Source: Lysobacter antibioticus HS124 | GTDB lineage: Bacteria; Pseudomonadota; Gammaproteobacteria; Xanthomonadales; Xanthomonadaceae | Direction of reading: 5' to 3' | Length of the DNA: 41,473 nucleotides | Assembly: GCF_000336385.2 (NCBI RefSeq) | Contig: NZ_HG424531.1 | Coordinates: forward strand, 1-41,473 | Part shown: positions 12,726 through 22,516 of the stretch, one piece after another | Position numbering within the stretch: position 1 is the first letter of the stretch | How the letters are laid out: each line of letters begins with the position of its first letter | Notes under the pieces: model-generated | The model's database searches: none | Told to the model about the DNA's origin: nothing | The model's input: the letters and a program-made list of their open reading frames with translations, nothing else | Translations under genes and position numbers: made by a program

Positions 12726-12767
12726 GTCCGGCGGACAGAGCGACTGTCCGGACGGACGCCCGGACAG
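12726..12767 (+). promoter_or_regulatory. Putative enhancer (upstream activator sites) for the sigma-54 operon
   Basis: Two palindromes of related sequence: GTCCG-G-CGGAC at 12726-12736 and CTGTCCGG, 8-nt spacer, CCGGACAG at 12744-12767. Centres are about 25 bp apart and roughly 70 and 95 bp upstream of the predicted start of transcription. Enhancer-binding proteins commonly bind paired dyads at such distances. The NtrC-type regulator encoded 7 kb downstream in the same module is the obvious candidate; this link is inference. Confidence 0.5.
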
Positions 12768-12801
12768 GAACGTACGCCATTTTAAATCAACAACTTGCGA
12801 T

Positions 12802-12816
12802 TGGCACGGGTTGTGC
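12802..12816 (+). promoter_or_regulatory. Sigma-54 (-24/-12) promoter
   Basis: TGGCACGGGTTGTGC matches the sigma-54 consensus TGGCACG-N4-TTGC except one base in the -12 element. GG and GC are separated by exactly 10 nt as required. Predicted transcription start is near 12828, about 28 nt before the ATG of the membrane fusion gene. A NtrC-type activator gene lies in the same module and palindromes lie just upstream. Confidence 0.72.
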
Positions 12817-12855
12817 TTGGGTTAAGCCCAGACATCCGGATCGAGCCGCATCGAA

Positions 12856-19820: not shown

Positions 19821-19842
19821 TCGCACGCACAATGGAATCCCG

Positions 19843-21201
19843 ATGCGCACGGTCTTGGTCATCGACGACAACCCCGCGGTCGCCACCGCTCTGGACCTGC
19901 TGTTCGGCCTGCGCGAGATTCGGGTGATCGCCGCGCAATCGCCTGAGGAAGGCCTGGCGTTGCTGGCGCGCGAAGACGTCGGCCTGGTGCTGCAGGACAT
20001 GAACTTCAGCGCCGACACCACGTCCGGCCAGGAAGGCGTGGCCCTGTTCCGGGCGATCCGCACGCGCCATCCCGACCTGCCGATCATCCTGCTGACCGCC
20101 TGGACCCATCTGGACATCGCGGTCGACTTGGCCAAGGCCGGCGCCGCCGACTACCTGGCCAAGCCCTGGGACGACCAGAAGCTGCTCGCCAGCGTCGAAA
20201 ACCTGCTCGAACTCGGCGCCAGCACCCGCGAGGTCTCGCGCCTGCACGAGCAGCGGCGCAAGCGCCACCGCGACCTGGAAGCGCGTTTCGACCTGCGCGG
20301 GCTGGTGTTCGGCTCCGAACGCCTGGCCGCGGTGATCGAGTTGGCCGGTCAGGTCGCGCGCGCCGACGTACCGGTGCTGATCACCGGCCCCAATGGCGCC
20401 GGCAAAGAGAAGATCGCCGAAATCGTGCAGGCCAATTCGGCGGTGAAGTCCGGTCCCTTCGTCACCCTCAACTGCGGCGCGATGCCTACCGAGCTGATCG
20501 AGGCCGAATTGTTCGGCGCCGACGCCGGCGCCTACACCGGCGCCAACCGGTCGCGCGAAGGAAAATTCGAGGCCGCCGACGGCGGCACCCTGTTCCTCGA
20601 CGAGATCGGCAACCTGCCGCCGGCCGGACAGATGAAGCTGTTGCGCGTACTCGAAACCGGACGCTTCGAACGCCTGGGTTCCAACCGGGAGCGCCAAGTC
20701 AGCGTGCGCGTGATCAGCGCGACCAACGCCGATCTGCCGGCGATGATCCGCGATGGCCGCTTCCGCGAAGACCTGTACTACCGACTCAATACGATCCAGA
20801 TCGACATTCCGCCGCTGGCCGAGCGCCGCGACGACGTACTGCCTTTAGCGCGGCATTTCCTCCAGGCCAACCCGCTCGGGTCCGGCAAGCGACTGGGCGA
20901 GGACGCCGAACAGGCCCTGCTCGCCCACGCCTGGCCGGGCAACGTGCGCGAATTGCGCAACACGTTGCAGCGTGCCGCCCTGCTGGCGCGCAGCCAGATC
21001 ATCGGCGCGACCGATCTCGGCCTGCCGTTGCCGGCGTCCGGCGCGACCGGCAACGGCGCTGCCGACGAACCCGATCGCGCGGCGATCGAGGCTGCGCTGG
21101 AGCGCGCCGGCGGCGTGCTGGCGCAGGCCGCGAGCGAACTGGGCCTGTCGCGGCAAGCGCTGTATCGCCGCCTCGACCGCCTCGGCATCCGGCGCGACTG
21201 A
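19843..21201 (+). CDS. NtrC-family sigma-54-dependent response regulator
   Basis: A 452-residue enhancer-binding protein in three domains. The receiver (1-120) has VIDDNP, phosphoacceptor Asp52 in LQDMNF, and Lys107 in YLAKPWD. The AAA+ domain (about 155-385) has Walker A GPNGAGKE (182-189), the sigma-54-contacting loop as GAYTGA (229-234, instead of the usual GAFTGA) and Walker B GGTLFLDEIG. The Fis-type helix-turn-helix at the end reads VLAQAASELGLSRQALYRRL. It activates sigma-54 RNA polymerase after phosphorylation, most likely by the kinase encoded next. A sigma-54 promoter at the head of this module is the obvious target. Confidence 0.96.
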   Translation: MRTVLVIDDNPAVATALDLLFGLREIRVIAAQSPEEGLALLAREDVGLVLQDMNFSADTTSGQEGVALFRAIRTRHPDLPIILLTAWTHLDIAVDLAKAGAADYLAKPWDDQKLLASVENLLELGASTREVSRLHEQRRKRHRDLEARFDLRGLVFGSERLAAVIELAGQVARADVPVLITGPNGAGKEKIAEIVQANSAVKSGPFVTLNCGAMPTELIEAELFGADAGAYTGANRSREGKFEAADGGTLFLDEIGNLPPAGQMKLLRVLETGRFERLGSNRERQVSVRVISATNADLPAMIRDGRFREDLYYRLNTIQIDIPPLAERRDDVLPLARHFLQANPLGSGKRLGEDAEQALLAHAWPGNVRELRNTLQRAALLARSQIIGATDLGLPLPASGATGNGAADEPDRAAIEAALERAGGVLAQAASELGLSRQALYRRLDRLGIRRD

Positions 21202-21211
21202 GGCCGCCCGC

Positions 21212-22516
21212 ATGCGCCGTCCGTCCCTGAGCCTGGTCTTCGCCGCGATCGCGCTGATCTACCTTGCCGCGGGCGCGGCCGCGACCTTGTGGCTGTCGGG
21301 CTATCTGTCCAATCGCTGGCTGGCGCTGGCCATCGTGCTCGCGATACTGGCGCCGCTGCTGATCTACCACGTGCGGCGCGCGTTCGCGCCGATGAATTCG
21401 CTGTTCCGCGCGCTCGCCGGCTCGGTGGCCAGCTACCGCGACGGCGACTATTCGATCAGCTTCCACTGGACCGGCGGCGGCGACCTGGGCGAACTGGTCG
21501 CCAGCCACAACCGCCTCGGCGATGCGCTGCGCGAGCAGCGCCTGAGCCTGGTCCAGCGCGAGCTGCTGCTCGACACCATGGTCCAGAACACGCCGGTGGC
21601 GATGCTGCTGGTCGATCCGAGCCGGCGCATCGTTCACGGCAATCTCGCCGCGCGCAAGATGCTCGGCGAAGGCCGGCGCCTGGAGGGCCAGGATTTCGCC
21701 GAACTGCTGGCGCGCGCGCCGTGGCCGATGCAGGAGGCCTTCGAGCGCGGCGGCGACGGCATGTTCAGCGTCGGCGACATCGAGAACGAAGAGATCTATC
21801 ACCTGTCGCGGCGCATCTTCCGTCTCAACGGCCGCGCCCACGAATTGGTGTTGCTGCGTCAGCTCACCGCCGAGCTGCGCCGGCAGGAAGTGCAGACCTG
21901 GAAGAAAGTGATCCGGGTGATCAGCCACGAGCTCAACAATTCGCTGGCGCCGATCGCCTCGCTGGCCCATTCCGGCGCCGAACTGCTGCGGCGCGGCCAG
22001 CACGAACGCCTGCCGACCGCGCTGCAGACCATCGAAGAGCGCGCGCGCCACCTGGAAGGCTTCATCCGCGACTACGCCCGCTTCGCCAAGCTGCCGGCGC
22101 CGCGGCTGCAACCGATCGAGTGGTCGCGGTTCATCGAACAACTGCGCAGTCAGGTCGCCTTCGTCTACGACGGTGTGCCCGGCGAAGCGGTGGCCCGAGT
22201 CGACGCGGCCCAGCTCGAACAGAGCCTGATCAATCTGCTCAAGAACGCGCACGAATCGGGCTCGGCGCCGGACGAAGTGCGGCTGCAGCTGCGTCGGGTC
22301 CAGGACGCCTGGCGCATCGACGTGCTCGACCGCGGCAGCGGCATGAACGATGCCGTGCTCGCCAACGCCCTGCTGCCGTTCTATTCGACCAAGCGCAACG
22401 GCACCGGCCTGGGACTGGCGCTGGCGCGCGAGATCGCCGAAGCCCATGGCGGCCGCATCGCCCTGCTCAACCGCCAGGGCGGCGGGCTATGCGTGTCGAT
22501 GGTGCTGCCGGACTGA
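21212..22516 (+). CDS. NtrY-type sensor histidine kinase
   Basis: A 434-residue membrane kinase. Two transmembrane helices (about 7-29 and 35-53) are separated by only a few residues, so there is no real periplasmic sensor. A HAMP-like linker and a PAS-like domain (about 120-215; NTPVAMLLVDPSRRIVHGN) follow. The HisKA box has His239 in VIRVISHELNNSLAPIASL, the form seen in NtrY kinases, and the ATPase domain has LINLLKNAHESG, DRGSGM and GTGLGLALA. It starts 11 nt after the regulator gene. With no periplasmic domain, signals may arrive through the membrane or from the neighbouring transporter, as in BceAB/BceS; that comparison is inference. Confidence 0.94.
   Translation: MRRPSLSLVFAAIALIYLAAGAAATLWLSGYLSNRWLALAIVLAILAPLLIYHVRRAFAPMNSLFRALAGSVASYRDGDYSISFHWTGGGDLGELVASHNRLGDALREQRLSLVQRELLLDTMVQNTPVAMLLVDPSRRIVHGNLAARKMLGEGRRLEGQDFAELLARAPWPMQEAFERGGDGMFSVGDIENEEIYHLSRRIFRLNGRAHELVLLRQLTAELRRQEVQTWKKVIRVISHELNNSLAPIASLAHSGAELLRRGQHERLPTALQTIEERARHLEGFIRDYARFAKLPAPRLQPIEWSRFIEQLRSQVAFVYDGVPGEAVARVDAAQLEQSLINLLKNAHESGSAPDEVRLQLRRVQDAWRIDVLDRGSGMNDAVLANALLPFYSTKRNGTGLGLALAREIAEAHGGRIALLNRQGGGLCVSMVLPD

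What the first reader, a model, noticed from the sequence alone, without database searches (positions are those of the whole stretch)
12726..22516. Self-contained sigma-54 export module: adaptor, small protein, ATPase, two FtsX permeases, exported DUF885 protein and its own NtrC/NtrY pair
Eight plus-strand genes form one functional block behind a near-perfect -24/-12 promoter (one mismatch, exact 10-nt GG-GC spacing) with two related palindromes upstream. A kinase without a periplasmic sensor beside an ABC transporter suggests flux- or membrane-mediated sensing, as in BceAB-type systems but with sigma-54 output. The exported DUF885 peptidase-like protein suggests a peptide-like substrate. I do not know of a described system with exactly this set.
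Basis: partly seen in the sequence, partly recalled or inferred. Interest (0 to 1): 0.75.

Follow-up and report, generated by a model that had tools for sequence, protein, structure and literature searches.

The report
Sigma-54 exporter with swappable permeases
This is a bacterial export pump that comes with its own on-switch and is shared by many relatives; in some of them one motor gene sits beside as many as six different permease pairs, which suggests that the part touching the cargo changes quickly, perhaps to keep up with rivals' antibiotics.

Summary
A -24/-12 promoter (12802-12816) and two GTCC/GGAC palindromes precede adaptor, small protein, ATPase, two FtsX/MacB permeases, DUF885, NtrC and NtrY-type kinase, divergent from glmS. 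All 19 other same-genus genomes keep the block. Permease 1 occurs in 259 of 297 family genomes. Over 93 loci with an adaptor, 84 of 86 with NtrC have the promoter; 83 of 87 promoters have a palindrome upstream. The core is adaptor-ATPase-permease pair-NtrC-kinase; DUF885 is a genus-level accessory, the 70-aa protein a new family of part of the lineage. No outer-membrane channel is in the block. The kinase has two membrane helices and almost no periplasmic part. Best reading: an inducible, self-regulated MacAB-like exporter for envelope-active compounds, one engine with exchangeable permeases. The substrate is not shown. A sigma-54/FtsX link was published in 2025 at COG level.

The parts
10834..12666 (-). 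glmS, divergent conserved neighbour (not part of the system)
   Evidence: start at 12666, 189 nt before the adaptor; beside the block in the same-genus loci and in most family loci
12726..12736 (.). first enhancer-like palindrome GTCC-N3-GGAC
   Evidence: site type upstream of 83 of 87 promoters
12746..12757 (.). second enhancer-like palindrome GTCC-N4-GGAC
12802..12816 (+). -24/-12 sigma-54 promoter TGGCACGGGTTGTGC
   Evidence: conserved in 87 of 93 loci
12856..14133 (+). HlyD/MacA-like periplasmic adaptor
   Evidence: HlyD_3, HlyD_D23; RND_mfp over its cut-off
14136..14348 (+). 70-aa protein of a new lineage-specific family, start overlapping the adaptor stop region
   Evidence: no Pfam, NCBIfam or PHROGs match; conserved core W..L.DAVPLRL..L..F; 78 of 297 family genomes; dN/dS below 1 in 8 of 8 comparisons
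14389..15117 (+). ABC ATPase, LolD/DarD-like
   Evidence: ABC_tran; best NCBIfam hit DarD, below cut-off
15128..16438 (+). permease 1, MacB_PCD + FtsX, like the first half of ADOP
16505..17728 (+). permease 2, MacB_PCD + FtsX, like the second half of ADOP; residues 61-300 are the stretch that looks exchanged between species
17866..19728 (+). exported DUF885 protein with HEGVPGHH motif; genus-level accessory
   Evidence: PF05960; solved relative 3o0y; motif at residue 439; in the 104-locus table only in the window's genus; signal peptide by eye
19843..21201 (+). NtrC-type response regulator (receiver, sigma-54 AAA+, Fis HTH; GAYTGA loop)
   Evidence: GAYTGA in 82 of 85 homologues
21212..22516 (+). 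NtrY-like histidine kinase, two membrane helices with a very short loop, PAS, HisKA, HATPase

Best explanation
A tripartite MacAB-like ABC exporter with a dedicated sigma-54 switch. The intramembrane-type NtrY-like kinase senses an envelope-active compound, in the membrane or through the transporter, and phosphorylates the adjacent NtrC-type regulator. The regulator binds the GTCC/GGAC palindromes and opens the -24/-12 promoter, raising adaptor, ATPase and permeases. ATPase and adaptor form a constant engine; the heterodimeric FtsX/MacB permease pair is the exchangeable, substrate-facing part, multiplied into tandem arrays in some relatives and remodelled by recombination of its periplasmic domain in others. 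The likely job is expulsion of amphipathic or peptide antimicrobials made by competitors. DUF885 and the 70-aa protein are lineage-specific add-ons. Shown by sequence: gene order and conservation, promoter and palindromes, kinase topology (by hydropathy), arrays, mosaic permease 2. Inferred: sensing mode, regulator binding, sharing of one engine, substrate.
For: Block complete beside glmS in 19 of 19 other same-genus genomes. Permease 1 in 259 of 297 family genomes, 50 of 54 genera. Promoter in 84 of 86 loci with NtrC and absent from 4 exporter loci without it; palindrome upstream of 83 of 87 promoters. In six genomes the exact palindrome TGTCCGCGGACA occurs 8 times, six of them at this promoter, the other two inside open frames. 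Kinase layout in 85 homologues. One ATPase and one adaptor gene with 5-6 permease pairs. Within arrays the periplasmic segments share 30-38% identity and the coupling helices about 80%. Periplasmic-domain-limited divergence of permease 2. Permeases, DUF885 and small protein mostly diverge faster than ATPase, regulator and glmS.
Against: No expression, binding or transport data. Substrate unknown; no resistance or biosynthesis gene in the block. L128 has exporter and promoter but no NtrC in its stretch; L148 and L149 have NtrC but no pattern match; L219, L221 and L222 outside the family have no exact match (L219 has no NtrC, L221 a version ending GA). Engine sharing is not proven: coupling helices of second-locus permeases (L052, L119, L152, L154) are nearly as similar (0.65-0.81) as those within arrays, and only L144-L146 are clearly lower, for permease 1. 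Nearest neighbours of perm1 and perm2 agree in only 89 of 149 pairs.
Confidence: 0.6

Rival explanations
1. The exporter secretes a self-made product: the 70-aa protein is the precursor of an exported peptide (or is itself exported), and DUF885 trims or degrades it.
For: Small ORF coupled to the adaptor and next to the ATPase in all 24 named loci; two copies in L046 and two hits in one other genome; best NCBIfam hit of the ATPase is the darobactin exporter ATPase; fast evolution.
Against: Absent from most family genomes that keep the exporter (78 against 259 of 297); no signal peptide by eye; I saw no modifying enzyme in the block; the conserved core is internal rather than leader-like by eye; arrays occur without it.
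Confidence: 0.12
2. A housekeeping envelope function: a LolCDE- or YbbAP-like extractor of lipids or lipoproteins whose expression follows membrane state, linked to cell-wall precursor supply through glmS.
For: Near-universal in the family and beside glmS in most family loci; ATPase scores well against LolD (217.8 bits, below its cut-off).
Against: Housekeeping permeases should not diversify into six-pair arrays or exchange periplasmic domains; outside the family the block is not beside glmS in the loci seen.
Confidence: 0.15
3. The adjacent NtrC/NtrY pair mainly regulates other genes and its place beside the exporter is only shared ancestry; the promoter answers to another enhancer-binding protein.
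For: No binding data; L128 has exporter and promoter without the pair in its stretch.
Against: Promoter and pair go together (84 of 86; absent in 4 exporter loci without NtrC). In six genomes the exact palindrome occurs at this promoter and otherwise only inside open frames.
Confidence: 0.07

Closest known systems
MacAB-TolC type tripartite ABC exporters (review PMC8277102 seen in a listing with the start of its abstract only)
   Same: HlyD-type adaptor, ATPase, FtsX permease with MacB periplasmic core domain
   Different: ATPase and permease are separate genes, the permease is a two-gene pair, no TolC gene in the block, own sigma-54 two-component pair, arrays in relatives
ADOP double permeases (TIGR03434)
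   Same: permease 1 and 2 align with the first and second half
   Different: split into two genes, scores 181.6 and 198.8 against a cut-off of 622.3; beside an ATPase and an adaptor, whereas ADOPs are called orphan (recalled)
Bce-type antimicrobial-peptide modules (abstract starts seen in a listing: PMC3023708, PMC10314905)
   Same: kinase of the intramembrane-sensing layout beside an FtsX-type ABC transporter
   Different: NtrC/sigma-54 output instead of OmpR type (recalled), adaptor present, paired MacB-like permeases
Darobactin exporter DarBCD
   Same: best NCBIfam hit of the ATPase; weaker hits of adaptor and permease 2
   Different: all below the curated cut-offs; no radical-SAM maturase seen in the block
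Sigma-54 regulated COG0577 permeases (PMC12316311; passages, and first part of section 19)
   Same: FtsX-like permeases predicted under sigma-54 in gamma-Proteobacteria, Opitutia and Bacteroidia
   Different: a COG-level enrichment; the passages seen give no module, enhancer, kinase, arrays or domain exchange

Membership tests
MacAB-type tripartite exporter | HlyD/MacA-like adaptor, ATPase and MacB_PCD+FtsX permease together | tested here: met
MacAB-type tripartite exporter | MacB as one protein with ATPase and permease fused | tested here: not met
   separate genes; MacB equivalog 202.9, 56.2 and 55.4 bits against 966
MacAB-type tripartite exporter | works with an outer-membrane channel | tested here: inconclusive
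   none in the block; OEP domains in six other frames of the genome; pairing not testable
ADOP duplicated permease (TIGR03434) | single double-length protein over 622.3 bits | tested here: not met
   two genes, 181.6 and 198.8 bits
Bce-type module | kinase with two helices and almost no extracytoplasmic part | tested here: met
   78 of 85 kinases have exactly two helices before the H-box; loops 0-18 aa
Bce-type module | OmpR-type regulator (recalled) | tested here: not met
   receiver + sigma-54 AAA+ + Fis HTH
Bce-type module | kinase activated by the transporter | not testable with these tools
   needs experiment
NtrC nitrogen regulator (TIGR01818) | equivalog score over 558.6 bits | tested here: not met
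   335.2 bits
Sigma-54 activator | AAA+ with GAFTGA-type loop, Fis HTH | tested here: met
   PF00158, PF02954; GAYTGA in 82 and GAFTGA in 2 of 85
Sigma-54 promoter | GG-N10-GC with TGGCAC..TTGC | tested here: met
   one mismatch; 87 of 93 loci
Darobactin exporter DarBCD | equivalog scores over 450, 375 and 700 bits | tested here: not met
   51.3, 261.1 and 26.3 bits

The most novel reading that the evidence does not exclude
The locus is a recognition repertoire: one ATPase-adaptor engine and one sigma-54 switch serve a set of interchangeable permease pairs whose periplasmic domains are stored as ordered arrays (up to six pairs) and renewed by domain exchange between lineages, so that the cell can bind and expel, and perhaps sense, many different antimicrobial peptides or lipopeptides of its competitors.
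Probability: 0.3. Interest if true: 0.82.

Novelty: new variant of a known kind. Interest (0 to 1): 0.6.

Why it matters
If true, it gives Gram-negative soil and plant-associated bacteria a self-regulated defence exporter that changes by swapping permease modules on a fixed engine. It makes two open questions testable: how ATPase-less 'orphan' FtsX permeases are energised (one ATPase for many pairs), and how kinases without a sensor domain are switched on. It also gives a concrete genetic unit, promoter and enhancer for a sigma-54/FtsX link that the one paper found here reports as a statistical enrichment.

Tried and rejected
DUF885 as substrate clue: rejected, because in the 104-locus table it appears only in the window's genus, the genome has seven DUF885 genes, and the slot holds other exported-looking ORFs in some other genera. 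Small protein as a spurious ORF: rejected. Small protein by known families and fold: no match, low-confidence model (mean pLDDT 59, pTM 0.19). Small protein outside the family: of 369 class genomes one other than the own matches, weakly and with three stops inside. The double-palindrome scan of the own genome found nothing, not even the window's own site, because its first spacer is 3 nt; the pattern had the same kind of fault, and the promoter pattern had its spacing one base short. The corrected scans find the sites but show that in this window alone they are at chance level. Sigma-70 and terminator scans: at chance level. Ten literature searches listed no paper that I recognised as describing the module; most subscription papers and all preprints are missing from that library.

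Array frequencies are not estimated: I chose several loci because they had several hits. In one search, 19 of 95 loci with a clean pair have two or more pairs, in an enriched sample. For the 93-locus count I dropped 20 of 104 fetched loci before counting (14 duplicates, 3 replaced by longer joined stretches, 3 without an adaptor gene) and added 9 joined ones; 7 of the 93 lie outside the family, and undetected duplicates may remain. The eight outside loci are not in that count: seven have NtrC, and the pattern is found in five (one of these 169 nt upstream). The named loci were found through the motif of the small protein, so its motif is ascertained there; the family search used a profile.
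Full report
WHAT IS THERE. The eight genes are real and in the order given. The window is one contig of a 5.1 Mb genome of 183 contigs. The adaptor start lies 189 nt from the divergent glmS start. The promoter TGGCACGGGTTGTGC is at 12802-12816, and two GTCC/GGAC palindromes lie at 12726-12736 and 12746-12757. The two permeases match the two halves of the ADOP double permease. The kinase, first scanned in a wrong frame, has PAS, HisKA and HATPase domains.

CONSERVATION. 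All 20 same-genus genomes searched, own included, have permease 1. In the 19 others, glmS, adaptor, ATPase, both permeases, DUF885, NtrC and kinase are together. The small ORF is there in each: 15 by tblastn and 4 by reading the gap. One of these genomes has a second partial copy without small protein, DUF885, NtrC, kinase and promoter (L052). In the family, 259 of 297 genomes in 50 of 54 genera have permease 1 at E<=1e-60. Of 20 further loci from 19 genomes in which the profile found no small protein, 18 have glmS, adaptor, ATPase, permease(s), NtrC and kinase; L119 lacks adaptor, glmS and pair, and L128 lacks glmS and pair. In other families of the class some loci have adaptor-ATPase-pair-NtrC-kinase without glmS nearby, and others the exporter alone.

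PROMOTER AND ENHANCER. Over 93 loci with an adaptor, 87 have TGGCA[CT]N7GC within 110 nt upstream, against 0.5% of Markov-1 controls. Of 86 with a full NtrC hit, 84 have it; the exceptions are L148 and L149. Of seven without a full NtrC hit, four lack it (L052, L144, L145, L146) and three have it: L088 (contig ends before that place), L105 (contig ends inside NtrC) and L128. A GTCC-N2-4-GGAC site lies upstream in 83 of 87 (control 1.4%). Eight genomes were searched for the exact palindrome TGTCCGCGGACA: six have it, 8 sites in all, against 1 for the reversed control pattern. Six sites are this promoter, and the other two lie inside open frames. The own genome and its close relative G016 have none, because their spacers differ. 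Outside the family the pattern is found in L220, L223 (169 nt upstream), L224, L225 and G858; L221 has a version ending GA; L219, which has no NtrC, and L222, which has it, show none.

THE KINASE. By hydropathy, 78 of 85 kinases have exactly two membrane helices before the H-box, four have three and three have one; in the 82 with two or more, the first loop is 0-18 residues. This is the layout of intramembrane-sensing kinases, a term that the abstract start of PMC3023708 uses with Bce-type transporters (listing). How it senses is inference.

PERMEASE ARRAYS. L118, L123, G149, G246, G102, G167 and G076 have five perm1-perm2 pairs (G149 one more perm2). G294 has six perm1 and seven perm2 genes. 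G858, outside the family, has six pairs. In each I found one ATPase and one adaptor gene in the cluster. The pairs are old: the smallest tree distance between paralogues of one array is 0.94 substitutions per site. Order is kept between species with losses and gains, for example types 15-14-13-10-8 in G246 and 13-10-8 in L156. The perm1 and perm2 trees correlate (r 0.92; the best of 500 permutations reaches 0.20), which partly reflects the species tree; within arrays r is 0.72 over 119 pairs. Nearest neighbours agree in only 89 of 149 pairs. Periplasmic segments of array members share 30-38% identity and coupling helices about 80%. Control: for permease 1 the coupling helices of exporters L144-L146 share 51-55% with array members, for permease 2 61-75%; those of the second-locus permeases L052, L119, L152 and L154 share 65-78% and 80-81%. 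The coupling helix therefore permits a shared ATPase but does not prove it.

DOMAIN EXCHANGE. Sister genomes L038 and L043 are 0.85-0.99 identical in coding windows of the block except the first two thirds of permease 2 (0.63-0.75). There dS over residues 61-300 is 0.65-1.07 (L041-L043: 0.52-1.31), but 0.14-0.20 before and after; dN is raised already in residues 1-60 (0.14-0.15), so the left border is blurred. The control pair L038-L041 has dS 0.11-0.24 throughout. L045/L046 show the same place with dS 0.53-0.65 over residues 61-250, and their permease 1 is raised throughout (0.23-0.46). High synonymous divergence points to import from a diverged donor rather than selection on point mutations alone. 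No donor was found among the other same-genus loci compared (best 0.70 for L043).

ACCESSORIES. DUF885 matches its whole Pfam model, has solved relatives (3o0y best) and the motif HEGVPGHH. One passage of PMC12572635 places DUF885 in the zinc peptidase clan Peptidase_MA. In three Luteimonas loci (L092, L095, L099) and in L124 the slot holds another exported-looking ORF, SnoaL-like by eye and not scanned. The small protein occurs in 78 of 297 family genomes in 20 of 54 genera and beside adaptor and ATPase in all 24 named loci: Lysobacter, Luteimonas, Thermomonas, Vulcaniibacterium, one MAG named Xanthomonas sp. and one named only Proteobacteria bacterium.

MECHANISM AND NOVELTY. The best reading is given in Best explanation. 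What it works like: an antimicrobial-peptide detoxification module of the Bce kind rebuilt from MacAB-type parts under sigma-54. What it is a member of: the FtsX/MacB exporter superfamily; it is not MacB, ADOP, DarBCD or Bce proper, since defining features or cut-offs tested here were not met. PMC12316311 (2025) reports COG0577 permeases enriched among predicted sigma-54 targets in gamma-Proteobacteria, Opitutia and Bacteroidia and calls this the first evidence of such a link (passages; of its section 19 I read the first of three parts). The association in outline is thus in print; the module, enhancer, kinase layout, arrays, domain exchange and small protein did not appear in the searches named in Tried and rejected.

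Noticed in passing
L113, L114, L126, L127, between last permease and NtrC: Exported-looking ORFs of 124-175 aa, PDZ-like by eye in at least two, occupy the slot that DUF885 has in the window.
   Followed up: no
window 22976-23848 and same-genus loci: A glycoside-hydrolase-18-like TIM-barrel protein follows the kinase and is found downstream in 12 of 20 same-genus loci; some of those stretches end early. Pfam match just below cut-off.
   Followed up: partly
L222 and L223, just upstream of the adaptor: In two distant loci a very short, hydrophobic ORF lies directly before the adaptor gene, seen by eye in the printed upstream sequence.
   Followed up: no
L119, L152, L154: Second loci with ATPase and one permease pair but no adaptor found; in L152 and L154 another kinase-like match lies upstream.
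   Followed up: no
L038, L041, L045, L046, L050, L051, between small gene and ATPase: Repeat-like stretches that read SLDSRLRGNDE or similar in one frame separate the small gene from the ATPase in several species.
   Followed up: no
window 3866-5323: Beta-lactamase-family serine hydrolase on the minus strand (PF00144, 207 bits).
   Followed up: partly
window 28138-41078: Of ten long ORFs scanned, eight gave no Pfam match; I did not check which of these are real genes.
   Followed up: no
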